In this document: in pieces, positions 15,869-33,640 of the stretch | Layout of the letters: each line of letters starts with the position of its first letter | Numbering within the stretch: the first letter of the stretch is position 1 | IMG/VR virus record: IMGVR_UViG_3300020580_000005 | Span: 1-37,678 of that record | Reading direction: 5' to 3' (one strand) | Length of the DNA stretch: 37,678 nt | From: a virus | Position numbers and translations under genes: made by a program | Notes under the pieces: model-generated | What the model was told of the DNA's origin: nothing | Seen by the model: the letters and a program-made list of their open reading frames with translations, nothing else | Databases searched by the model: none

Positions 15869-16141
15869 ATGTCTAAAGATATCATAGATATGTATAAAGA
15901 ACTGGCAAAAGTTACTGCTTCTTTTAGACCCAAAGGAGTTCCGACAAAAGATAATTGTAATGAATTTCTTTATGTTCAAAAAATAGAACATTCTATATAT
16001 TCTCAGACTTTAGAATATCTGCATGAACATTGTGAAGATAGTCAAAATATTGTTGGTATTGAGATAACGAAAGCCTGTATAAAAATAAATGAACAATTGA
16101 CCGATTATTTATTATCTAAAATAAAAGAGGGTTTTCATTAA
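15869..16141 (+). CDS. Small helical protein, tandem family A, member 1
   Basis: A 90-residue, probably all-helical acidic protein. The region FRPKGVPTKDNCNEFLYVQK, then IEHSIYSQTLEYL, aligns with the two following genes (F-P ... LY--+IE--I-S-TL--L). The ribosome site GTAAGGTGAATAA is moderate. It ends in a TAATG overlap with member 2. Family unknown to me; early expression is suggested by its own promoter. Confidence 0.6.
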   Translation: MSKDIIDMYKELAKVTASFRPKGVPTKDNCNEFLYVQKIEHSIYSQTLEYLHEHCEDSQNIVGIEITKACIKINEQLTDYLLSKIKEGFH

Positions 16142-16422
16142 TGCAAAAATTTATGCCAATATTTGTCACGCTAATGAATATCACTAAGGCGTTCAAACCA
16201 AAGATAATGGATGACTTGAGCATTACTTTAGATGATTGCCATAAGTGTTTATATATCATGAGAATTGAAAATCATATACTGTCAGAAACATTAAGGGTAT
16301 TAAGCGAGTGTGTTCCAGGTGAAGAAACTACTACATATATTAATGAAATAAAAGATTTTATTAAAAATAATGATGAAAATATCGCAGTATTATTAAAAGG
16401 TTTAAATAAGGAGGTTAACTAA
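16141..16422 (+). CDS. Small helical protein, tandem family A, member 2
   Basis: A 93-residue protein, MQKFMPIFVTLMNITKAFKP at the start and CLYIMRIENHILSETLRVL in the middle. The start resembles members 3 and 4 (M-[QH]-[KR]-F-[MLF]-P) and the middle resembles member 1. It is joined to both neighbours by TAATG overlaps, so translation is probably coupled and the subunits made in equal amounts. Confidence 0.6.
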   Translation: MQKFMPIFVTLMNITKAFKPKIMDDLSITLDDCHKCLYIMRIENHILSETLRVLSECVPGEETTTYINEIKDFIKNNDENIAVLLKGLNKEVN

Positions 16423-16703
16423 TGCATAGATTCCTGCCAGCATGTCTTCGGGTAATAGAACTGATTGATAGCCATATGCCTCCTATAGATTCTTTAGATG
16501 ATGCCGATACCACAGTTCGATTACATTTATATAAGCTTGAATTATTAGTTTTAAATGATTTGTTATTATATTTAGGCAAATTTACTGAACGTGGTAGTAG
16601 TGCCAACATTGAGGCTATGGAGAGATTAATAGAGCATAAAAAAGTAATACAAGACGTTGTAGATATGATTGAAAAATGTGAAAAACCGGTGACGATTAAT
16701 TGA
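16422..16703 (+). CDS. Small helical protein, tandem family A, member 3
   Basis: A 93-residue protein starting MHRFLPACLRVIELIDSHMP, with LHLYKLELLVLNDLLLYLGK in the middle. A strong ribosome site (AAGGAGGTTAACTA) lies in the end of member 2. The C-terminal helix is charged (EHKKVIQDVVDMIEKCEKP). It ends in TGATG with a 14-codon mini-frame that leads into member 4. Confidence 0.6.
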   Translation: MHRFLPACLRVIELIDSHMPPIDSLDDADTTVRLHLYKLELLVLNDLLLYLGKFTERGSSANIEAMERLIEHKKVIQDVVDMIEKCEKPVTIN

Positions 16704-16747
16704 TGAATAAACATATCGAAATCATTCAAGATGGTAGTTATGCATAA
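16703..16747 (+). CDS. Possible 14-residue coupling peptide
   Basis: ATG shares its A with the stop of member 3 (TGATG). The frame encodes MNKHIEIIQDGSYA and its TAA overlaps the ATG of member 4 by eight bases (ATGCATAA). No other ribosome site serves member 4 well, so this frame may exist to carry ribosomes across the gap. The peptide itself may have no function. Confidence 0.35.
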   Translation: MNKHIEIIQDGSYA

Positions 16748-17036
16748 GTTTTTTCCATTGATAAAATCTATTTTAGATGAGATTAGAATCAGATTGAAAG
16801 AAGAGGGAACTTTAGATGAAGCAATCAACAATAAAGAAGATAATGATAGTCTGAATTTACTTGAATTTGAGATAGATATAATTACCGCGGGTATTCTATT
16901 ATTGTTTAGATCTACCCTGAACTTAAATGCAGATGACGTTATTTTTGTTTCCCACTTACAACAACTAAAAATTATGGAACAAGAAATTATTGATTTAATA
17001 AGATTGGGTAAAAAATCGCCCAATGTTAGAATCTGA
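16740..17036 (+). CDS. Small helical protein, tandem family A, member 4
   Basis: A 98-residue protein starting MHKFFPLIKSILDEIRIRLK, the same start pattern as members 2 and 3, followed by NLLEFEIDIITAGILLLF. ATG 16740 is chosen because it forms the 8-base overlap ATGCATAA; an in-frame ATG at 16731 is possible. It overlaps the next gene by 14 bases. Function unknown. Confidence 0.55.
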   Translation: MHKFFPLIKSILDEIRIRLKEEGTLDEAINNKEDNDSLNLLEFEIDIITAGILLLFRSTLNLNADDVIFVSHLQQLKIMEQEIIDLIRLGKKSPNVRI

Positions 17037-17244
17037 TGATTCTAATTTAGATGACTTTATTATAGCCTTACATCGGCTTCAAGCATTGAAGATTGAACAT
17101 GAATATGATGTTTCGGCAGAGTCAATACTTCTGTGCACTTCCTATGATGCAATGCGCGAAGTTATGGACAAGCGTGATCATGAAATTGCGATGATTAATG
17201 CCGAGACAGCAAAACAGTTAGCGAAATATAAATCTAAGAGTTAA
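17023..17244 (+). CDS. Small helical protein closing the family A operon
   Basis: A 73-residue helical protein (LDDFIIALHRLQALKIEHEY, then CTSYDAMREVMDKRDHEI). It is shorter than and only faintly like the four upstream proteins. The start lies inside the previous gene. Its last 11 bases overlap the end of the convergent minus-strand gene. No terminator hairpin is visible between them. Confidence 0.5.
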   Translation: MLESDDSNLDDFIIALHRLQALKIEHEYDVSAESILLCTSYDAMREVMDKRDHEIAMINAETAKQLAKYKSKS

Positions 17245-17542
17245 TGAAACCACATGCTCGTGAAATTATTCCCAATATTGACAATATACCTATTATATAC
17301 CACACGAATTTAAACCAAAAAAGACTTTTATCGATTCTATCCAATATAATGTAATTATCAATATGCGATTTATTAATATGTGAGTATAGATTTATAAGCG
17401 CTTCATTCATTATATGAGAAGTGTTCGATATTTCAGCTTGAAGTAAGTCTAATTTTTCAATTATTCTAACATGCCTATTATGCAAAATTTGATTTTGAGT
17501 TAAAGCTTCTTCTTCAGGAGATATTTGTTCTTCGTTATCCAT
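17234..17542 (-). CDS. Coiled-coil protein with C-terminal membrane anchor
   Basis: A 102-residue protein; ATG 17542 (MDNEEQISPEEEALTQNQ) is chosen over an upstream in-frame start inside the preceding gene. Residues 20-65 are helical, with RIDKSLFWFKFVWYIIGIL leading into a C-terminal transmembrane span. The motif (D/N)RI(D/E)K-LFW is shared with the gene just upstream, so the two are diverged paralogues. It is last in a minus-strand operon headed by a HTH protein. Confidence 0.55.
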   Translation of the reverse strand: MDNEEQISPEEEALTQNQILHNRHVRIIEKLDLLQAEISNTSHIMNEALINLYSHINKSHIDNYIILDRIDKSLFWFKFVWYIIGILSILGIISRACGFINS

Positions 17543-17546
17543 TTTT

Positions 17547-17762
17547 TTACCTAAAAAAATTAGCCATGAATGCCGCAATCATACCCGCACCAATATAACG
17601 CATCCAAAACAAATCTTTTTCTATGCGGTTTAATGTTTTTTCAATACTGCCCATTTCTTCGACTAAAGCACCTTGTTGATGTGCAATTATCTTTGCTTGT
17701 TCTATTGGAGTTCCGGTAGCCACAAGCTCTTCATATAATGTCAAAGTATCTTTATAAGCCAT
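17547..17762 (-). CDS. DUF1640-like coiled-coil/TM protein
   Basis: A 71-residue protein: MAYKDTLTLYEELVATGTPI, EQAKIIAHQQGALVEEM, then NRIEKDLFWMRYIGAGMIAA as a C-terminal span. The order (short helix, acidic coiled coil, one C-terminal span) resembles small bacterial DUF1640-type proteins. Ribosome site AAAGGAGAAACAA is strong. It is a paralogue of the gene at 17774 (M-A-Y-x-DTLT motif), which lacks the span. Confidence 0.6.
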   Translation of the reverse strand: MAYKDTLTLYEELVATGTPIEQAKIIAHQQGALVEEMGSIEKTLNRIEKDLFWMRYIGAGMIAAFMANFFR

Positions 17763-17773
17763 TTGTTTCTCCT

Positions 17774-17935
17774 TTATTTGTTATAGTTTGATAATCGATT
17801 ATTTAGTATATCAATTTTAGATTCTAATTCTTTACGCATTTCATTCGTTAGGATAACAATTGATCTTGCAACTTTTTCTGTACAACCAGCAGCAACTAGT
17901 TCGTTAAACATTGTTAATGTATCTATGTAAGCCAT
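17774..17935 (-). CDS. Short soluble paralogue of the DUF1640-like protein
   Basis: A 53-residue protein starting MAYIDTLTMFNELVAAGCTE and continuing with a charged helix (NEMRKELESKIDILNNRL). It matches the first half of the 71-residue product downstream but stops before the membrane span. Strong ribosome site (AATAGGAGATTAAA). A soluble version beside an anchored version could compete for the same coiled-coil partner. Confidence 0.6.
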   Translation of the reverse strand: MAYIDTLTMFNELVAAGCTEKVARSIVILTNEMRKELESKIDILNNRLSNYNK

Positions 17936-18533: not shown

Positions 18534-18773
18534 TTACGTTACGAAAAAATCGCTTAAATTTTCAGGTTTATTTTCTAATTGACTCGCTGCATAAATAAAT
18601 ACATTTCTCATATCATTTAAAAGATTTGGAGGTGCTTTAGATCCAGGAATCTCAAGAAACTGTATAAGCATACTTCGAATACTAATTAATTTTTCATTGT
18701 TTTTTAATTCATCAATTTCAAGAAGTTTATCTACAGCAACTCTTGCACCTATTAGCATTTCAGCATCAGTCAT
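18534..18773 (-). CDS. Small helical protein, family E
   Basis: A 79-residue protein: MTDAEMLIGARVAVDKLLEI, DELKNNEKLISIRSMLIQFL, then PPNLLNDMRNVFIYAA. Two helices with a Pro-rich turn before a third are shared with the neighbours upstream. ATG overlaps the previous stop by eight bases (ATGACTGA). Function unknown. Confidence 0.55.
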   Translation of the reverse strand: MTDAEMLIGARVAVDKLLEIDELKNNEKLISIRSMLIQFLEIPGSKAPPNLLNDMRNVFIYAASQLENKPENLSDFFVT

Positions 18774-19002
18774 TACTAGCCTCCGGAAATGGCAATGATG
18801 GCAAACCTCGTTCCTTAAATATTGGGTCTAGAAGAATTGCTATTATATGATTGGTATTTGTAATTTCTGGCTCTGGCTTAGAAAGCTCACCAACAATCAA
18901 TAGCAATGCTAGTCTTATCCGAACATCATGTTTCTGATCTTCATCATCAAACATTCTTTCTAATATATGCTTCATTCTGAGAAGGACTTCATGGTTGGTC
19001 AT
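18766..19002 (-). CDS. Small helical protein, family E
   Basis: A 78-residue protein: MTNHEVLLRMKHILERMFDD, DEDQKHDVRIRLALLLIVGEL, then SKPEPEITNTNHIIAILL. The order matches its neighbours: helix, acidic DLKHD-like turn, helix, KPxP-type turn, helix. It begins three bases after the stop of the 64-residue gene upstream and ends in an 8-base overlap. Confidence 0.55.
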   Translation of the reverse strand: MTNHEVLLRMKHILERMFDDEDQKHDVRIRLALLLIVGELSKPEPEITNTNHIIAILLDPIFKERGLPSLPFPEASND

Positions 19003-19005
19003 TGT

Positions 19006-19200
19006 TCACATTCCTAAGTCAAACTTCATGCGATTCATACACATAAAATTCATTACTTTAACTATGTTAGGTTTTGGCTTAGTCATCTCTTCATCAATTA
19101 ATTTTTTCAAATCTTGAAGATATGCATCATGCTTTAAATCTCCAGTTTCTTTTATAAATTCGAGATTTTTTCTAAAATGTAAAAGAGATTTAATACTCAT
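19006..19200 (-). CDS. Small helical protein, family E
   Basis: A 64-residue protein: MSIKSLLHFRKNLEFIKETG, DLKHDAYLQDLKKLIDEEM, TKPKPNIVKVMNFM. DLKHD and TKPKPNI align with DQKHD and SKPEPEI in the next gene. Ribosome site GAGGGGGTGAGTT. It follows the RHH gene and is probably co-transcribed from the promoter at 19453-19481. Confidence 0.55.
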   Translation of the reverse strand: MSIKSLLHFRKNLEFIKETGDLKHDAYLQDLKKLIDEEMTKPKPNIVKVMNFMCMNRMKFDLGM

Positions 19201-19213
19201 AACTCACCCCCTC

Positions 19214-19417
19214 TCAATGATTCACATAACCCGGATTGGGCTTATTCTGTATTGCCATTTCCCTTTCGATAGCTTCGCTTAACCATTTTCTAACCAAAGC
19301 AGAGCTGTTATTTTCTATAGTTTTTTTAGCTAACTTTCTTATTTGTTTAACCATATCTGGATGAACCTTAACGTGAAGTCTGGTTGTAAATTGGCCTTCG
19401 TGTTCTTCAATAGTCAT
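19214..19417 (-). CDS. Ribbon-helix-helix DNA-binding protein
   Basis: A 67-residue protein. FTTRLHVKVHPDMVKQIRKL is the beta ribbon and first helix; AKKTIENNSSALVRKWLSEA is the turn and second helix, as in Arc/CopG/ParG dimers. P22 Arc and Mnt belong to this fold. It heads the minus-strand family E operon. An inverted repeat overlaps its -10, and a related sequence lies in a second early promoter at 21001, so it probably represses both. It could also bind the repeats at 19.7-20.0 kb. Confidence 0.72.
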   Translation of the reverse strand: MTIEEHEGQFTTRLHVKVHPDMVKQIRKLAKKTIENNSSALVRKWLSEAIEREMAIQNKPNPGYVNH

Positions 19418-19481: not shown

Positions 19482-19702
19482 CTATAGGAACGGAACCTCA
19501 ATATTTTTTTGGTGGGTTATATTCCTTTGACTTTACCCACTGATTTTAATTACAGAGAACAAATATTGATTCGAGACAATTTTAGGGGCGGATCTATATT
19601 GGTTGAATCCCAAAATATGTGCTTAGCATATTTGAAATATTTTCGCTCACACTTTATGAGAGCTCTTTTTTGGCCATCGTCGCGACTGAATAGACCGTTT
19701 TT
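19482..19702. other. Left part of the intergenic region, nothing recognised
   Basis: Between the RHH promoter and the first iteron I see no convincing gene. A 68-codon plus-strand frame at 19509-19715 lacks a ribosome site and family resemblance and runs into the iterons. No hairpin terminator or promoter stands out. Confidence 0.4.
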
Positions 19703-19780
19703 GGGGGCTCGATAGTCCATTTAAAGGGCTCGATTGTGGATTATGGGGGCTCGATAGTCTGTTTTTGGGGGCTCGAAAGT
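19703..19780 (+). repeat. Iteron array: four 21-22 base repeats
   Basis: Core GGGGGCTCGATAGT at 19703, 19745 and (GAAAGT variant) 19767, with a diverged copy (GGGCTCGATTGT) at 19726. Aligned starts are 19703, 19724, 19745, 19767, spacings 21, 21 and 22 bases, that is two helical turns. TGTGGATTA at 19735-19743 is one mismatch from a DnaA box read in reverse. This is the layout of an initiator- or partition-protein binding array. No gene overlaps it. Confidence 0.7.
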
Positions 19781-19831
19781 GGTCTATTTCCCTTGACGGT
19801 CTAAAATTTTAATACCGTGAAGGGTTGATTA

Positions 19832-19987
19832 ATGGTGTGACCATGGTGGGACCATTACATAAATACCTGGCATAAGCCTATTGCCTTTGCCAACTATTTT
19901 ATGGCTTATGCCAACTATTTTAGGAAAAAATCGATGGTGGGAGTAGATGGTGGGACTATGGTGGGACCAAAGCAAGAATGGTGGGAC
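19832..19987 (+). repeat. Six short direct repeats ATGGTGGGAC
   Basis: Copies start at 19832 (ATGGTGTGAC), 19843, 19934 (ending GAG), 19947, 19958 and 19978. Spacings of 11, 91, 13, 11 and 20 put several copies on one face of the helix. They differ from the upstream iterons, so a second protein probably binds here. Confidence 0.65.
19868..19922. repeat. 11-base inverted repeat with interleaved 14-base direct repeat
   Basis: TGGCATAAGCC (19868-19878) pairs perfectly with GGCTTATGCCA (19903-19913). TGCCAACTATTTTA occurs at 19888-19901 and 19909-19922, 21 bases apart. The AT-rich direct repeats inside an iteron-rich zone resemble the unwinding region of an origin, but the inverted repeat would also fit an operator. 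Confidence 0.55.
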
Positions 19988-20016
19988 TAAGTTGTATAAC
20001 TAGGGATGGGCATATA

Positions 20017-20045
20017 GGGGGGGTATAGGGAGGGTATATAGGGGG
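20017..20045 (+). other. G-quadruplex-type motif
   Basis: G tracts at 20017-20023, 20028-20030, 20032-20034 and 20041-20045 are separated by 4, 1 and 6 bases, which satisfies the usual four-tract rule. More G runs follow at 20078-20086. It lies between the repeat arrays and the RecE promoter, where it could affect melting or transcription. Folding is predicted only. Confidence 0.5.
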
Positions 20046-20109
20046 AGTACGGTTTTTTGACGGCGTGACGGATAAATGGGGGAAGGGAACTAGAAGATAA
20101 AAATAAGTG

Positions 20110-20183: not shown

Positions 20184-20993
20184 ATGAAAGAAGCAGGCAT
20201 TTACACCGACTTATCTATTACTGAGTATCACTCATCAGAAGGAATCAGTTCAAGTGGCATTACATTACTTATAGACTGTCCTAAGCGGTATTTCCACAAG
20301 TACATAGAGAAAGGCCCAAGTGAGCCTACGACGGCTATGGAACTGGGCAGTGCGGTCCATATGCTGGTCCTAGAACCCGAGTTATTCCACAAAACTTACT
20401 TCCTAATGAGAGAGTCATGCGATTTAAGATTTAAGGTCGGCAAAGAAGCATTGGCCAAGGCTGAGCTAGAAGCTAATGGCCGAACCATTATGCGGAAGGG
20501 AACATGGGAACAGGCGGTTGCAATGGCTGATTCAATCAAAGCTAGTGCCACGTGGAACAAGATAATCCCTGGAAATGTTGAGCACTCAGTTCTTTGGGAT
20601 GCGGGAATTTACAACACTAGACTTCGGGCTCGACCTGACTTTTATAATGACACCATGATCGTGGATATAAAGACGACTGACTCTATTAAGGGTTTTTCAA
20701 AATCAATTCATAACTATGGTTATCACAGACAGGCAGCAATGCAAATTGATGGTCTGTACCGTCATGACGGAAAACAACGGTTTTTCGGGTTTATGGTAGT
20801 AGAAAATAAGGCGCCATATCTTACTGCTTGTTTCGTTTTAAATGAACCGACCATTAGACAGGGTAGAAGAGAGTATCTAGATGCCGCAGCTCTATACCAT
20901 GAGTGCATGAGCACTGGTGAATGGCCAGGTTATGAAGAATGTTTCCAAGAAATATCTATACCAGCATATGCAATTAAAGAAGAAATAATTTAA
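20184..20993 (+). CDS. RecE-type exonuclease (PD-(D/E)XK, exonuclease VIII family)
   Basis: A 269-residue nuclease that would resect double-strand ends 5' to 3' and load the RecT annealing protein encoded at 21658. Motifs in order: SSSGITLLIDCPKRYFHKY (residues 22-40), LGSAVHMLVLEPE (54-66), RARPDF with Asp152, MIVDIKTT with Asp161 and Lys163, and the QAAMQIDG helix with Gln183. These are the core acids of the PD-(D/E)XK fold in RecE C-terminal domains, and the length fits the catalytic domain alone. It has its own promoter. Confidence 0.85.
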   Translation: MKEAGIYTDLSITEYHSSEGISSSGITLLIDCPKRYFHKYIEKGPSEPTTAMELGSAVHMLVLEPELFHKTYFLMRESCDLRFKVGKEALAKAELEANGRTIMRKGTWEQAVAMADSIKASATWNKIIPGNVEHSVLWDAGIYNTRLRARPDFYNDTMIVDIKTTDSIKGFSKSIHNYGYHRQAAMQIDGLYRHDGKQRFFGFMVVENKAPYLTACFVLNEPTIRQGRREYLDAAALYHECMSTGEWPGYEECFQEISIPAYAIKEEII

Positions 20994-21064: not shown

Positions 21065-21232
21065 ATGTACGAAATGGTAGAAGATTGGAATTGGCAGTTA
21101 TTCCCGGATAACCAGTCACAAAGCAAAAGAGTCGCAAAAGGGCTCTTATTGATGAAAGCGAGAGGGTGCAAGCTTGACGGTCTTTTGGAGGAGGATTTGA
21201 AGCGTGGGATTATTAAGGTGGTGCCAAAATGA
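21065..21232 (+). CDS. Small protein, first gene of the RecT operon
   Basis: A 55-residue basic protein: MYEMVEDWNWQLFPDNQSQS, KRVAKGLLLMKARGCKLDGL, then an acidic helix. Good ribosome site (CCAGGAGAAAGAAG). It is coupled to the next gene by ATGA. No known domain was recognised; position suggests an accessory to RecE/RecT recombination or an inhibitor of host nucleases. Confidence 0.5.
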   Translation: MYEMVEDWNWQLFPDNQSQSKRVAKGLLLMKARGCKLDGLLEEDLKRGIIKVVPK

Positions 21233-21468
21233 ATGAACAAATAAAGTCACTTACCGAAGATGAAGCTTATTTGGCTGATGCAATACAAGGTATTCTGAGA
21301 GCTCATGGGTACAATGTTCCGCAACTTTATTGTAGGTTAACAATTGCGGAGATGAGACCATATTTTGTTGGTGAAAAAGAAGTGAAGAATACTTCATGGA
21401 ATAATTATCCTAAAAAAATGTTAGAAGCGAATGCACTAGGAATTGCTTTAGGAGTGGTTGAAGAATGA
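21229..21468 (+). CDS. Small protein upstream of RecT
   Basis: A 79-residue protein with DEAYLADAIQGILRAHGYNV and then LTIAEMRPYFVGEKEV. Near its end NNYPKKMLEANALGIAL resembles TTYPKRMLQLRARGFAL in the RecT protein two genes on, which may be chance or a shared binding segment. It overlaps both neighbours by ATGA. Function unknown. Confidence 0.5.
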   Translation: MNEQIKSLTEDEAYLADAIQGILRAHGYNVPQLYCRLTIAEMRPYFVGEKEVKNTSWNNYPKKMLEANALGIALGVVEE

Positions 21469-21657: not shown

Positions 21658-22530
21658 ATGAGTAATGAAATATCGATAGCTGAACGAAGAAACCTAGGGT
21701 TTTTACATCCTTTTACATTAGAGGAAGCAATAAAAACCAGTGAATTGTTAGCAGCCAGTGGTTTATGTCCCGTTGCGTATAAGGGAAAGCCGGGAGATAT
21801 TCTTGTAGCTATTAACTATGGGCAAGAAATTGGCTTAAAGACAATGGCATCCCTACAAAATATTGCTGTAATAAACGGTAAACCGTCTTTATATGGTGAT
21901 GCTATGCTGGCTGTTTGCAGGCTATCTCGATCATTTCAGACTATCGAAGAAACATATGATGTCAACACTACGACCTATACATGTGTGGTTTTTAGAAAAA
22001 ATGAACCAGCATTTGTTTACAGCTTTAGCATGGCTGATGCAAAGACAGCGGGTTTATGGCAAAAGGCCGGCCCATGGACGACGTATCCAAAACGAATGCT
22101 ACAATTGCGAGCACGAGGCTTTGCATTAAGAGATGCTTTCCCTGATATATTAAAGGGTATTATTATGGTTGAAGAGGTGGAAGATTATGAAAATTTAAAC
22201 AATAAACAAACACAATACAAAAGACCAATTAAAGATGTGGGTGTAACGCTTGACAATAATCCAGAGCAGGAAGAATTAATTAATGAAGAACAAATAATTG
22301 AACTTCAGCAATTAGTAGATGAACTTAAAGGTGATTTGAGCAAAACTTGTAAGCATTTAAACATTGAGTCTGTTGAGCATATGAACGTTGATCAATGGTC
22401 TGTCTTAATTAGACAGTTTTCCAAGAAAGTGATTGAGAAAAGAAAGCTTGAAAACTTGCCGATTAACATGCACGTTCAGGAAATGATGAGTGATGACGCA
22501 AAAGAATTCTTTGGGGATGAAAATGAATGA
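21658..22530 (+). CDS. recT: RecT-type single-strand annealing protein
   Basis: A 290-residue protein of the RecT/Redbeta type. Residues 17-70 (FTLEEAIKTSELLAASGL, then GDILVAINYGQEIGLKTMAS) and IAVINGKPSLYGDAMLAV (78-95) are characteristic. KAGPWTTYPKRMLQLRARGF (about 136-155) is the conserved helix seen in RecT proteins. The C-terminus is charged and ends KEFFGDENE. It anneals strands exposed by the exonuclease and could make concatemers or drive recombination. The ending GDENE is shared with the small proteins that follow because the same DNA is the ribosome site and start of the next gene. Confidence 0.85.
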   Translation: MSNEISIAERRNLGFLHPFTLEEAIKTSELLAASGLCPVAYKGKPGDILVAINYGQEIGLKTMASLQNIAVINGKPSLYGDAMLAVCRLSRSFQTIEETYDVNTTTYTCVVFRKNEPAFVYSFSMADAKTAGLWQKAGPWTTYPKRMLQLRARGFALRDAFPDILKGIIMVEEVEDYENLNNKQTQYKRPIKDVGVTLDNNPEQEELINEEQIIELQQLVDELKGDLSKTCKHLNIESVEHMNVDQWSVLIRQFSKKVIEKRKLENLPINMHVQEMMSDDAKEFFGDENE

Positions 22531-22700
22531 AGGGCTTAGAGATAAAAAGATAGATTGCACCTTAGATTTTTTAGTTGAAATAACTGGTTTTATTTCAAGT
22601 TATTTAGAATCACGAGATCCACATTTCAAATGTTGTTTGAATCAAAAGTTATCTGAATTACAGAGCGCAAAAGAACTCTTTGGAGATGAAAATGAATAAA
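22499..22700 (+). repeat. Direct repeat: duplicated gene-junction unit (33 bases, 169-base period)
   Basis: Positions 22499-22531 and 22668-22700 match at 30 of 33 bases and are exactly 169 bases apart. The next start (22861) is again 169 bases on. The repeat includes the end of the upstream gene (codons KE-x-FGDENE), the ribosome site GGRGATGAAA and the next ATG. It shows that the small genes multiplied by duplication between junctions. Confidence 0.75.
22523..22699 (+). CDS. Small helical protein, family B1, member 1
   Basis: A 58-residue protein starting MNEGLRDKKIDCTLDFLVEI and continuing TGFISSYLESRDPHFK. The core L-F-hydrophobic-G-F-x-S-x-YLES-DP-F is shared with the genes at 22692, 23057 and 23446. 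It ends ELFGDENE. ATG overlaps the recT stop by eight bases (ATGAATGA). Upstream in-frame starts lie inside recT and lack this arrangement. Confidence 0.65.
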   Translation: MNEGLRDKKIDCTLDFLVEITGFISSYLESRDPHFKCCLNQKLSELQSAKELFGDENE

Positions 22701-22868
22701 TTACAATACAATAAAAACTTAAGTACCGATGAAAAATTAGATCTTTTATTGATGCTAAATTCATCGATTATAAGTTACATAGCACATAAGGAACCATTGT
22801 TTTTAGAATACATTGATGAAGAAATGGCTAAGTTTAATAACGAAGCTTTGGGAGGCGAACATGAGTGA
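22692..22868 (+). CDS. Small helical protein, family B1, member 2
   Basis: A 58-residue protein, the same length as member 1: KLDLLLMLNSSIISYIAHKE, then PLFLEYIDEEMAKFN. It ends GGEHE, a variant of GDENE. The 8-base overlaps at both ends (ATGAATAA and ATGAGTGA) are kept. Probably the direct duplicate of member 1, then diverged. Confidence 0.65.
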   Translation: MNKLQYNKNLSTDEKLDLLLMLNSSIISYIAHKEPLFLEYIDEEMAKFNNEALGGEHE

Positions 22869-23064
22869 CGAACAAACCGAAAAGAGAGATATAGTTTTGA
22901 ACATTAACTTTGAGATAAACAAAGAGGATGTGATATTTGTTAGGTATGCATTTGTTCCTCGTTTTTTGTCTCATCTTAAGGAAAACAATAGCCATCGTGA
23001 GCGCTTTATTTCTGAATTGATAGAAAGATTAAATGGATATATAGATGGAGATGAAAATGAGTGA
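22861..23064 (+). CDS. Small alpha/beta protein, family B2, member 1
   Basis: A 67-residue protein: MSDEQTEKRDIVLNINFEIN (strand-like), VIFVRYAFVPRFLSHLKENN, then RERFISELIERLNGYI and GDENE. It matches the gene at 24170 (IIPSFLRHLKNHREECDTFF) and more weakly that at 23235. It is a different fold from B1, suggesting B1/B2 pairs. Confidence 0.62.
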   Translation: MSDEQTEKRDIVLNINFEINKEDVIFVRYAFVPRFLSHLKENNSHRERFISELIERLNGYIDGDENE

Positions 23065-23242
23065 TTCTATATTTTTAACAAAAGAAGAATTTTTATTTGA
23101 AACAGATAAAAGGATTAAGAAACTTGAAGAAGCGGTAGAATTCTTGAGTAGAGTTTCAGGTTTTCATACTGGATACCTTGAGTCAGAAGACCCAATTTTT
23201 AAGCGTAATTTTCATAAATTTTTTGGAGATAGTGATGGGTAA
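23057..23242 (+). CDS. Small helical protein, family B1, member 3
   Basis: A 61-residue protein with a longer N-terminal helix (FETDKRIKKLEEAVEFL), then SRVSGFHTGYLESEDPIFKR, very close to member 1 (GFISSYLESRDPHFK). It ends FFGDSDG. The ribosome site GGAG and the 8-base overlap (ATGAGTGA) are conserved. Confidence 0.65.
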   Translation: MSDSIFLTKEEFLFETDKRIKKLEEAVEFLSRVSGFHTGYLESEDPIFKRNFHKFFGDSDG

Positions 23243-23453
23243 TGAAGCAAGTGATGTACTTTTACAGCTTACTGTACTTGATATTAAAAATGATGATAAC
23301 ACTTATTCGCAAAAATGTTGCATTTCATATAAAAAATCTTTTGCTAGATTTCTTAAGTTGGAGGAATTACCTAGAGATCTTTTTTTTGATTTTATTATAA
23401 ATAAATTAAAGGAAGGCGTTGATAATTTCTCATCAGGAGATGAAAATGAGTGA
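23235..23453 (+). CDS. Small alpha/beta protein, family B2, member 2
   Basis: A 72-residue protein: ASDVLLQLTVLDIKNDDNTY, SYKKSFARFLKLEELPRDLF, FDFIINKLKEG, ending SSGDENE. The order of strands then S-FARFLK...FF-IINKLK parallels FVPRFLSHLK...FI-ELIERL of member 1. It follows a B1 gene, as member 1 does. Confidence 0.6.
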   Translation: MGNEASDVLLQLTVLDIKNDDNTYSQKCCISYKKSFARFLKLEELPRDLFFDFIINKLKEGVDNFSSGDENE

Positions 23454-23661
23454 TTTTGAAGTTAAAGTAAAAAGTGATATTGACGAAATAAATAGAAAGT
23501 TGAACATATTAATTCAAGCTATTGAGTGGATGACACAATATAACATGTTAAATGATCCGAACTATCTATATACCATAGATACATTGAGAGTAAAGTTAAG
23601 TGAAGATATTAATAAATTAAGAAATAATTGTAATAAATCCACTGGAGATACCGATGAGTAA
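23446..23661 (+). CDS. Small helical protein, family B1, member 4
   Basis: A 71-residue protein: SDIDEINRKLNILIQAIEWM, TQYNMLNDPNYLYTIDTLRV, ending STGDTDE. The helix-turn-DP-x-hydrophobic-helix layout fits B1, though it is the most diverged member. ATGAGTGA and ATGAGTAA overlaps flank it. Confidence 0.6.
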   Translation: MSDFEVKVKSDIDEINRKLNILIQAIEWMTQYNMLNDPNYLYTIDTLRVKLSEDINKLRNNCNKSTGDTDE

Positions 23662-23902
23662 TGAGTTAGAATTATTATTGGATATTGCTAATCAATTTCA
23701 TTTATTAGCAAAGCGTGTGAAAGAAATTGATAATCTATCCACTCAATTGGGTAATTGTTTTTATGATTGCTCTATGAATTATAATAATCCAAAATTTCCC
23801 GATAAACTTCTTGCAAAATGGATGACTGCATGCATTAAGTTTAGGAAAAAGCATGATATTATTGATTCAAAGATATATAACTTATTGGGGGAAGCGAAAT
23901 AA
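23654..23902 (+). CDS. Small helical protein of the array
   Basis: An 82-residue protein: LELLLDIANQFHLLAKRVKE, CFYDCSMNYNNPKFPDKLLA, KWMTACIKFRKKHDIIDSKI. Its last third (LAKWMTACIKFRKKHDIIDSK) is weakly like LSKWNDLLAQFKEAASEIDTK in the next gene. It lacks the GDENE end and joins the next gene by TAATG. Confidence 0.55.
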   Translation: MSNELELLLDIANQFHLLAKRVKEIDNLSTQLGNCFYDCSMNYNNPKFPDKLLAKWMTACIKFRKKHDIIDSKIYNLLGEAK

Positions 23903-24177
23903 TGGGTGAGAAAAAAGTTTCTGCAAAACAAATGGAATCTGAACTTAAAGAGCTAAATGACCTGCATGTAAATCTTAATGAGATTCTTGACCAAATACAT
24001 GGGTTATTAAGAATGGCACATGACCTTCGGGACCATTTAAACTCGACATCTCTATACTTTGGCAGTTCAACAGTAAGAAAAGTTAATTTATCTAAATGGA
24101 ATGATTTATTGGCCCAATTTAAAGAGGCTGCATCGGAGATTGATACGAAATTATTTGAGAGGAATGAAAATGAGTAA
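23902..24177 (+). CDS. Coiled-coil small protein of the array
   Basis: A 91-residue helical protein: SAKQMESELKELNDLHVNLN, EILDQIHGLLRMAHDLRDHL, then VNLSKWNDLLAQFKEAASEI, ending FERNENE. Leu-rich heptads suggest a coiled coil. The ending NENE and the overlap ATGAGTAA are a diverged form of the array junction. Confidence 0.55.
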   Translation: MGEKKVSAKQMESELKELNDLHVNLNEILDQIHGLLRMAHDLRDHLNSTSLYFGSSTVRKVNLSKWNDLLAQFKEAASEIDTKLFERNENE

Positions 24178-24391
24178 GCCAGAGATAAAGATTACCTTGC
24201 AACAAGAAAGTGTATTAGATATCAGCGTTTATGTTGATGAAAAAGGGGGAGCAGATAGTAGAGTTGCAATTATTCCAAGCTTCTTAAGGCACCTTAAGAA
24301 TCACCGTGAAGAATGTGATACGTTTTTTGATGATTTAATTATACAGTTTAAGAAGCATATAAATGAGTATGAAGATGAGCTGGTTAATTAA
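24170..24391 (+). CDS. Small alpha/beta protein, family B2, member 3 (last of array)
   Basis: A 73-residue protein: MSKPEIKITLQQESVLDISV, VAIIPSFLRHLKNHREECDT, FFDDLIIQFKKHI. It is a clear relative of the gene at 22861. It ends NEYEDELVN without a junction motif because no coupled gene follows. A 157-base gap with a promoter comes next. Confidence 0.62.
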   Translation: MSKPEIKITLQQESVLDISVYVDEKGGADSRVAIIPSFLRHLKNHREECDTFFDDLIIQFKKHINEYEDELVN

Positions 24392-24485
24392 TATATGGTA
24401 TCACCTGACAGGGAGGGGGAAATTTGCCACTCCGCTTTCAAGATTGGTAGAGAGGGATGATGCTCCTGACATATATATACCTCGA

Positions 24486-24514
24486 ATGACACCTCCTTCT
24501 AAATAGGCTATACT
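24486..24514 (+). promoter_or_regulatory. Promoter for the outer-membrane protein gene
   Basis: -35 ATGACA (24486-24491), 17-base spacer, -10 TATACT (24509-24514), about 35 bases before the ATG at 24549. The ribosome site ACGGAGGCTGTC follows. An own promoter allows expression independent of the early operon. Confidence 0.55.
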
Positions 24515-24548: not shown

Positions 24549-25169
24549 ATGGTTAAATTATTAATCGGTGTCATTTCTGTTGTTTATATTTCTACTGCTA
24601 ACTGCAATCCTTACTTGGGAATGGATGCCCAAGTTCGCCATATAAACTTTAAACAAGACTTTTATGGCATTACTCTTAAGAGACATTATCCACAATGTAA
24701 TGTTTTTGTAGGTTATATGCTTAACGATCATTTCGGTCTTGAAGCTGGATATTCGTTATCAAAAAATCAATATACTTCTAAGAAGTCTAACCCTATTTTC
24801 ATTCCTAACAAGAACCCTAGGCTTAATAGTATTAAATATGATATGAGCCATGCTACACCAAAATTTAGTGCATGGAATATGAATCTTACAGGTTCGCTTC
24901 CTTTAAATGAAAGCATGAATCTTATTGGTTCAGTTGGCGTAACATGCTTAAAAATACAAATAAAAAATATATTTTCCAATGAGCAAACTATTCATTATAT
25001 AAAGCATAAATCAGTTTTAAGATTGAGTGGCGGAGTGCAATTCAAGCTGTTAGACTATGTGGGATTGAGGCCCACGGTTATCTGGGAAAATACTTCAAGG
25101 ATAATGTTAGGTAACGCTAAGCCAAAAAATAGCATTCAGTATGGCCTTGGCATAATCCTAACTATTTAA
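24549..25169 (+). CDS. Phage-encoded outer-membrane beta-barrel protein
   Basis: A 206-residue protein with a signal peptide (MVKLLIGVISVVYISTANC, cleavage about residue 19-20). Alternating strands follow: YLGMDAQVRHINF, CNVFVGYMLNDHFGLEAGYS, FSAWNMNLTGSLPL, LIGSVGVTCLKIQI, VLRLSGGVQFKLLDYVGLRP, ending SIQYGLGIILTI. Size and strand count suggest an eight-stranded OmpA/OmpX-type barrel; lambda Lom is a known phage parallel in layout. It may alter adhesion, serum resistance or phage receptor access in an infected or lysogenic cell. The role is inferred. Confidence 0.75.
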   Translation: MVKLLIGVISVVYISTANCNPYLGMDAQVRHINFKQDFYGITLKRHYPQCNVFVGYMLNDHFGLEAGYSLSKNQYTSKKSNPIFIPNKNPRLNSIKYDMSHATPKFSAWNMNLTGSLPLNESMNLIGSVGVTCLKIQIKNIFSNEQTIHYIKHKSVLRLSGGVQFKLLDYVGLRPTVIWENTSRIMLGNAKPKNSIQYGLGIILTI

Positions 25170-25197: not shown

Positions 25198-25374
25198 ATG
25201 CTTGATACATTTCCTGTCGAACACCTTAAACAAGAGGTAAGATTACTGACTCTTAAACTTGATGCTTTGGTAAAAATTACTGAAGTGGTTTGTTTACATC
25301 TTAGTGATAAAGATGGCTCATTCGAGAAGCTGCTAGAAAAAGGCTGTCAGTCTTTCTTGAGTGATAGCGATTAA
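25198..25374 (+). CDS. Small helical protein before the replication gene
   Basis: A 58-residue protein: MLDTFPVEHLKQEVRLLTLK, LDALVKITEVVCLHLSDKDG, then FEKLLEKGCQSFLSDSD. A GGGG tract (CCGGGGCAAAATT) serves as ribosome site. Helical, leucine-rich, no known domain. It lies between the barrel gene and the Rep leader; a copy-control or Rep-accessory role is only a guess. Confidence 0.5.
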   Translation: MLDTFPVEHLKQEVRLLTLKLDALVKITEVVCLHLSDKDGSFEKLLEKGCQSFLSDSD

Positions 25375-33547: not shown

Positions 33548-33566
33548 TAAGTTTAATAACTATTAA

Positions 33567-33637
33567 CGGACCCACAAGGATTCGAACCTCAATCTTTAGA
33601 TTATTAGTCCCGCGCTCTACCATTGAGCTATGGGTCC
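33567..33637 (-). tRNA. tRNA gene with irregular anticodon arm (anticodon AAT by position, Ile?)
   Basis: Read on the minus strand: acceptor GGACCCA/TGGGTCC (7 pairs), TA, D arm GCTC-AATGGTA-GAGC, anticodon arm CGGGA-CTAATAA-TCTAA, 4-base variable loop, T arm TGAGG-TTCGAAT-CCTTG, discriminator G; 71 bases. Acceptor, D and T arms are good. The anticodon stem has only three pairs next to the loop (A-T, G-C, G-T); the outer two are C/A and G/A mismatches. The loop position gives AAT, rare in bacteria. CCA is not encoded. It may be a degenerate tRNA or a decoy, so identity is uncertain. Confidence 0.7.
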
Positions 33638-33640
33638 GAT

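What the first reader, a model, noticed from the sequence alone, without database searches (positions are those of the whole stretch)
22523..24391. Nine-gene array of tiny proteins from two alternating families
B1 helical proteins (22523, 22692, 23057, 23446) and B2 alpha/beta proteins (22861, 23235, 24170) alternate, with two further coiled-coil members. The first two starts and the next are exactly 169 bases apart. Diverging paralogues in an early operon after RecE/RecT look like a diversifying set of host-takeover or anti-defence proteins. No known family was recognised.
Basis: partly seen in the sequence, partly recalled or inferred. Interest (0 to 1): 0.75.

Follow-up and report, generated by a model that had tools for sequence, protein, structure and literature searches.

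The report
Tiny-gene cassette array beside phage recT
Just after its DNA-annealing gene recT, an uncultured phage carries a row of very small overlapping genes whose membership differs between near relatives, and two of them look like free-standing copies of the tail domain of RecT itself, which suggests how phages assemble such gene sets.

Summary
The nine tiny ORFs are real, and there is a tenth (24375-24506). B1 (g1, g2, g4, probably g6) and B2 (g3, g9, g5) are true paralogue families, but they do not strictly alternate. The main new point: the two "coiled-coil" genes (g7, g8) match the C-terminal domain of RecT in reciprocal profile searches against 18,030 ORFs. In lambda that domain binds exonuclease and SSB and has the fold of Orf. 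Eight of nine junctions overlap by exactly 8 nt around a GGAGATGAAAATGA-like block; no other overlap in the window is 8 nt. Relatives carry different genes between the same flanks (recT and the 24375 ORF). In a sister array, two contigs about 97% identical there differ by exactly one gene, with both ends in an 11-nt start-codon repeat. I read this as an array of start-codon-bounded cassettes, turned over at short identities (RecT involvement inferred), encoding RecT-CTD-like recombination modulators plus acidic accessory proteins of unknown target. Host takeover or anti-defence is possible but untested. No homologue was found outside a few related contigs. Orthologues show purifying, not diversifying, selection. 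New variant of a known kind.

The parts
20184..20993 (+). recE-like exonuclease gene, head of the operon
   Evidence: PHROG exonuclease VIII E 7e-77; Pfam DUF3799/PDDEXK
21658..22530 (+). recT, Redbeta/RecT-type annealing protein; left fixed flank of the array; its C-terminal domain is about residues 209-264 (22282-22449)
   Evidence: PHROG RecT/Bet-like E 1e-46; PDB 7ujl E 0.0018; 63-64% identical in L004 and L010
22523..22699 (+). g1, B1 family, 58 aa; 3' end repeats the 3' end of recT
22692..22868 (+). g2, B1 family, 58 aa
22861..23064 (+). g3, B2 family, 67 aa; 67-70% identical orthologue directly after recT in L010; model beta-beta-alpha-alpha
23057..23242 (+). g4, B1 family, 61 aa
23235..23453 (+). 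g5, B2 family by profile, 72 aa
23446..23661 (+). g6, probable B1 member, 71 aa
   Evidence: weak
23654..23902 (+). g7, C family, 82 aa, weaker relative of g8 and of the RecT C-terminal domain
23902..24177 (+). g8, C family, 91 aa, resembles the RecT C-terminal domain; 48% identical orthologue directly after recT in L004
24170..24391 (+). g9, B2 family, 73 aa
24375..24506 (+). D, tenth overlapping ORF, 43 aa; right fixed flank, conserved after the last cassette in L004 (duplicated) and L010
22497..22531 (+). recT/g1 junction copy of the 35-nt repeat (other copy 22666-22700, 3 mismatches)
22682..22695 (+). junction block GGAGATGAAAATGA (exact also at 23047 and 23436; one mismatch at 22513)
   Evidence: 6 matches with up to 2 mismatches against 0.59 expected
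25198..25374 (+). g10, B1-like gene outside the array, conserved in L004 and L010 at 48-60%
15869..17244 (+). second array of tiny overlapping genes; internal copies differ in relatives between conserved end genes
18534..19200 (-). array of tiny genes whose equivalent in L095/L097 shows gene presence/absence at start codons

Best explanation
It is a translationally coupled array of tiny accessory genes in the recE-recT operon of an uncultured podovirus-like phage, in which each gene behaves as a cassette running from one start codon to the next. Shown by sequence: the genes fall into three families (B1, B2, C); those with orthologues are under purifying selection; the junctions share an SD/start block with a nearly uniform 8-nt overlap; relatives carry different genes between the same flanks; and in a sister array one gene is present or absent exactly between copies of an 11-nt start-codon repeat. 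Inferred: turnover happens by annealing or template exchange at these short identities, plausibly by the phage's own RecE/RecT. Strongly indicated: g8 (and more weakly g7) are free-standing relatives of the RecT C-terminal domain. Inferred from lambda Redbeta, whose CTD binds exonuclease and SSB: they act at SSB, RecE or RecT as recombination modulators, comparable in role to lambda Orf. Inferred with low confidence: the acidic B1/B2 proteins are early accessory factors, for example against host nucleases such as RecBCD, whose synthesis is tied to that of RecT by coupled translation.
For: Family tests. Eight-nt overlap at 8 of 9 junctions and at 0 of 11 other overlaps in the window; junction block GGAGATGAAAATGA; exact runs of 11 nt or more across the start in 8 of 36 array pairs and 0 of 406 other start pairs; recT tail repeated at g1. 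Different genes between recT and D in L004 and L010. L095/L097 difference of one gene with both ends in GAATGACCGAC. RecT-CTD link: reciprocal HMM hits among 18,030 ORFs, hhalign 94%, E 1.3e-7, with control comparisons at 0.1-0.5%, RecT CTDs found in whole records at E 3.6e-9 and 4e-9. dN/dS 0.16-0.20. Literature: Redbeta CTD binds exonuclease and SSB and has the Orf fold (PMC8303780); Rad52-like phage recombinases shuffle diverged sequences (PMC3945230).
Against: The g8 model is a helical hairpin, not a three-helix bundle, though from only four sequences. Adjacent junctions in the main array often share only 3-8 exact nt in register, so not every exchange can be explained by today's junctions. 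Junction likeness could partly be selection for strong SD and coupling. No exchange at 95% identity or more was seen in this array itself, only in a sister array. RecT involvement and every protein function are untested.
Confidence: 0.5

Rival explanations
1. Host-takeover or anti-defence island: each tiny protein inhibits a host defence or housekeeping protein, and copies diverge to follow host targets.
For: Early-operon position after recE/recT; acidic proteins of 6.7-8.5 kDa for B1/B2; gene content differs between relatives; P22 keeps anti-RecBCD factors in its recombination system (PMC9836394).
Against: No hit to known families; orthologues under purifying selection; the C family points to recombination. 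Not exclusive of the best explanation.
Confidence: 0.3
2. Ordinary tandem duplication and drift: the genes are duplicates kept by chance, and the junction likeness only reflects selection for a strong SD and translational coupling.
For: g1/g2 have equal length and adjacent copies; SD and A-rich spacers are under common selection; many adjacent junctions share short exact runs only.
Against: 8-nt overlaps are absent elsewhere in the window and start sites elsewhere are much less alike; the 35-nt recT/g1 repeat joins unrelated gene bodies; L004 and L010 attach different families to the same recT junction.
Confidence: 0.3
3. The resemblance of g7/g8 to the RecT C-terminal domain is convergence of helical, charged sequences.
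For: Both are helical and charged; the g8 model is a hairpin; the PDB profile search with the C family is led by designed coiled coils.
Against: Reciprocal profile hits rank above 18,030 natural ORFs; other tiny families of the same genome give 0.1-0.5% in hhalign; 0 of 300 shuffles score as high for g8; the one invariant internal residue of the C family, Trp66 of g8, aligns with Trp247 of RecT.
Confidence: 0.2

Closest known systems
Lambda Redbeta C-terminal domain and lambda Orf (NinB)
   Same: g7/g8 are small proteins resembling the C-terminal domain of the phage's own annealing protein; in lambda the free-standing Orf shares the fold of the Redbeta CTD and binds SSB (PMC8303780)
   Different: No Orf family hit at sequence level; here they lie directly downstream of recT and the resemblance is to RecT by sequence; binding untested
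Short boundary sequences and tail sharing in phage mosaics (lambdoid phages; Island3 gp67/gp68)
   Same: Exchange of single genes at short shared sequences at gene boundaries; an extra gene whose C-terminal tail copies that of the upstream gene (PMC3029335)
   Different: Here one junction type recurs through an array of tiny coupled paralogues, the shared sequence spans SD, start and stop codons, and several arrays occur in one genome
P22 Erf/Abc1/Abc2/Arf and lambda exo-bet-gam
   Same: Small early proteins encoded with the phage recombinase, some acting on RecBCD (PMC9836394, PMC3784561)
   Different: No sequence relation found; here the genes are paralogous families rather than single unrelated genes

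Membership tests
RecT/Redbeta C-terminal domain (for g7, g8) | Sequence relation to RecT C-terminal domains | tested here: met
   Reciprocal HMM hits, hhalign 94% E 1.3e-7 with low controls; strong for g8, weaker for g7
RecT/Redbeta C-terminal domain (for g7, g8) | Three-helix bundle fold | tested here: inconclusive
   Model from 4 sequences is a helical hairpin, pLDDT 80; fold search gives generic helical matches
RecT/Redbeta C-terminal domain (for g7, g8) | Binding to phage exonuclease and SSB | not testable with these tools
   Known for lambda Redbeta only (PMC8303780)
Lambda Orf (NinB) family | Sequence match to the family | tested here: not met
   No such hit in Pfam or PHROGs at E up to 1; similarity of role is inference only
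RecBCD inhibitors Gam and Abc2 | Sequence match to the Gam or Abc2 families | tested here: not met
   No such hit for any of ten proteins in Pfam or PHROGs at E up to 1
Boundary-sequence gene exchange in phages | Short shared sequence at the gene boundaries | tested here: met
Boundary-sequence gene exchange in phages | Gene gain/loss or exchange with ends at those sequences in near-identical genomes | tested here: met
   Met in the sister array (L095/L097); in the main array only between more diverged relatives
Boundary-sequence gene exchange in phages | Catalysis by the phage recombinase | not testable with these tools
   Inference from PMC3945230
Anti-defence or host-takeover proteins | Inhibition of a host system | not testable with these tools
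   No informative family hit; needs expression tests

The most novel reading that the evidence does not exclude
Phages of this group run an integrase-free gene-cassette system: start-codon-bounded tiny genes in several arrays, shuffled by the phage's own RecT at built-in junction repeats, with copies of the RecT C-terminal domain among the cassettes that regulate recombination, so that the annealing protein both builds the array and is tuned by its contents.
Probability: 0.2. Interest if true: 0.8.

Novelty: new variant of a known kind. Interest (0 to 1): 0.5.

Why it matters
Phage early regions are full of tiny genes of unknown origin and function. Here part of the origin can be read: two genes look like copies of a domain of the neighbouring recombinase, one carries a copy of the recT 3' end, and in a sister array the unit of gain or loss is one start-codon-to-start-codon gene. 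This gives a concrete, testable route (short shared start junctions plus a phage annealing protein) for how accessory and possibly anti-host gene sets are built, and a ready set of small proteins to test for control of recombination.

Tried and rejected
Known family for B1, B2 or C: no significant hit in Pfam, PHROGs or PADLOC. Wider homologues of the tiny proteins: pattern scans of viral contigs found only the same related contigs; 36 further records gave nothing convincing; 143 genomes of the Legionella MAG's order gave only short matches inside longer proteins for B1 and a 28-residue match for B2 inside 736-755-residue frames, the one examined being RelA/SpoT, all taken as chance. Phage record collection: nothing similar to the recE-to-g10 region by DNA, nothing significant to g8. 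Apparent B1-to-RecT similarity came from the shared junction tail and vanished when tails were trimmed. A RecT-like motif in the conserved ORF 21065-21232 was not supported. Fold search with the B2 model: no significant match in PDB or viral models. Fold search with g8: generic helical matches only; the Redbeta CTD was not among the rows shown, which proves nothing. The RecT pattern scan of bacterial genomes found no relative. A simple chain scan of 80 RecT loci showed coupled tiny genes mainly in the nearest relatives, but its rules were crude.
Full report
WHAT IS THERE. The window is a virus record of 37,678 bases with a 127-bp direct terminal repeat, so it is probably a complete, circular assembly. 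It has an Sf6-type small terminase subunit, a P22-like portal and a phage major head protein. The nearest terminase in bacterial genomes is 70% identical, on a contig of a Legionella MAG, closely followed by a 66% match on a contig binned as Flavobacterium; the host is thus only hinted at. RecE is an exonuclease VIII homologue and RecT a Redbeta/RecT-type annealing protein. D is conserved in both distinct relatives that cover the region, so recT and D are the fixed flanks.

FAMILIES. B1: g1-g4 and g1-g2 are clear, g6 is probable, and g10 (25198-25374), outside the array beyond an outer-membrane barrel gene, resembles B1 and is conserved at about 50-60% in L004 and L010. B2: g3-g9 clear, g5 supported by profile. 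C: g8 with two neighbouring genes of L004, and g7 more distantly. No convincing relation between B1 and B2 was found. The order is B1 B1 B2 B1 B2 B1? C C B2, so 'alternating' is approximate. The 169-base spacings are exact. dN/dS between orthologues is 0.17 (g3), 0.16 (g8) and 0.20 (g10), with recT at 0.15-0.16 and recE and terminase at 0.05: real genes under purifying selection. Near-saturated dS makes these ratios rough.

JUNCTIONS. Counting recT/g1, eight of nine junctions overlap by exactly 8 nt; none of eleven other overlaps examined in the window is 8 nt, and in prokaryotes 4-nt (about 45%) and 1-nt (about 15%) overlaps dominate (PMC3887535). The block GGAGATGAAAATGA occurs exactly at 22682, 23047 and 23436 and with one mismatch at 22513; there are six matches with up to two mismatches in the whole window against 0.59 expected. 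Exact in-register runs of at least 11 nt across the start codon occur in 8 of 36 array pairs and 0 of 406 other start pairs. A 35-nt stretch over the recT/g1 junction is repeated with three mismatches at the g1/g2 junction, though no similarity between the bodies of RecT and g1 was found once tails were removed. The same kind of tail sharing was described for gp67/gp68 of mycobacteriophage Island3 and taken there as a trace of recombination (PMC3029335).

TURNOVER. In L004 (and G005, identical there) recT is followed by a g8 homologue and a second C gene, then D (duplicated); in L010 by a g3 homologue, then D; here by g1-g9, then D. The recT junction is the same 8-nt type in all three. RecE is 83-93% and terminase 90-92% identical between the window and these phages, whereas RecT is 63-64% and array content differs. 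Other arrays of tiny genes exist at 15869-17244 (+), 17234-17935 (-) and 18534-19200 (-); the first differs in its internal genes between conserved end genes in L095, L097 and L098. The cleanest event is in the equivalent of the last: L095 and L097, 94-97% identical there, differ by one complete gene (63 codons, 188 nt from start to start), and both ends of the difference lie in GAATGACCGAC at the start codons; a second tiny gene differs at a neighbouring junction. Gain cannot be told from loss. Rad52-like phage recombinases, including Redbeta and RecT, promote shuffling between diverged sequences (PMC3945230); that RecT did so here is inference.

RecT TAIL DOMAIN. The C family resembles the RecT C-terminal domain. 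With the junction tails removed, profiles of two to four C proteins, searched against 18,030 stop-to-stop ORFs from the window and fetched loci, gave RecT CTDs as the best hits outside the C family: E 4.6e-4 with two sequences, 5e-6 with three, 7e-7 with four. The reciprocal profile of three close RecT CTDs found g8 at 6e-5, ahead of the CTD of the L018 RecT at 2.9e-4; a broader profile of six CTDs gave g8 only 0.06, still its best hit outside RecT. hhalign gives 94% probability, E 1.3e-7, over 50 columns, against 0.1-0.5% for control comparisons. In whole records the C profile finds the RecT CTD at 3.6e-9 and 4e-9. The single internal invariant residue of the C family (Trp66 of g8) aligns with Trp247 of RecT. 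Against this, the g8 model is a helical hairpin rather than a three-helix bundle, although a model from four sequences is a weak test. In lambda, the Redbeta CTD (193-261) binds lambda exonuclease and SSB and has the fold of Orf, an SSB-binding recombination mediator (PMC8303780). I therefore propose that g7/g8 act on SSB, RecE or RecT. This is inference from homology.

B1 AND B2. No homologue outside the related contigs, no known family, and no significant fold match for the B2 model (beta-beta-alpha-alpha, pLDDT 76). All B1 and B2 proteins are acidic (pI 4.6-5.0). Phages with their own recombinase often add a RecBCD inhibitor (PMC3784561), and P22 has Abc1, Abc2 and the small acidic Arf in its recombination system (PMC9836394). 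An anti-nuclease role is a reasonable guess and no more.

VERDICT. Observation partly confirmed and extended; interpretation partly supported. The array is a new variant of known phage gene mosaicism at short boundary sequences, with the unusual features of a recurring uniform junction, several such arrays in one genome, and apparent free-standing copies of the RecT tail domain beside recT.

Noticed in passing
window 15869-17244 (+): Second array of tiny overlapping genes, with clear paralogue pairs (15869/16141, 16422/16740); in L095, L097 and L098 the internal genes differ while the 16422-like and 17023-like genes are kept.
   Followed up: partly
window 17234-17935 (-); L018 6809-7075: Paralogues starting MAY(K/I)DTLT; in the more distant phage L018 a clear homologue lies directly after recT, so gene families appear to move between arrays.
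   Followed up: partly
window 18534-19200 (-); L095 5316-6177; L097 5728-6201: Array of tiny genes; L095 has two genes that L097 lacks, one of them bounded exactly by the 11-nt start-codon repeat GAATGACCGAC.
   Followed up: yes
window 19700-20060: Intergenic stretch upstream of recE rich in direct repeats (TGGGGGCTCGATAGTC, ATGGTGGGA) and an inverted repeat, next to a ribbon-helix-helix gene (19214-19417, -); may be an operator region between divergent operons.
   Followed up: no
window 24549-25169: Outer-membrane beta-barrel (OmpA-like) gene in the early region, kept in L004 and L010 and with similar barrel-like genes downstream of recT in L017-L019; possible surface or superinfection-exclusion function.
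   Followed up: no
window 21229-21468: Tiny ORF upstream of recT with a weak resemblance (RecT profile E 0.23; ranked second of 14,754 short ORFs) to the WxxYPKRML motif of the RecT core; may be another RecT-derived fragment. Not seen at this place in L004 or L010.
   Followed up: partly
L004 3148-3878: ORF D is duplicated with its upstream 30 nt repeated exactly, including part of the preceding coding sequence.
   Followed up: no
window 33566-33638 (-): A tRNA-Ile gene predicted with anticodon AAT, unusual for bacteria, on the strand opposite to the structural genes.
   Followed up: no
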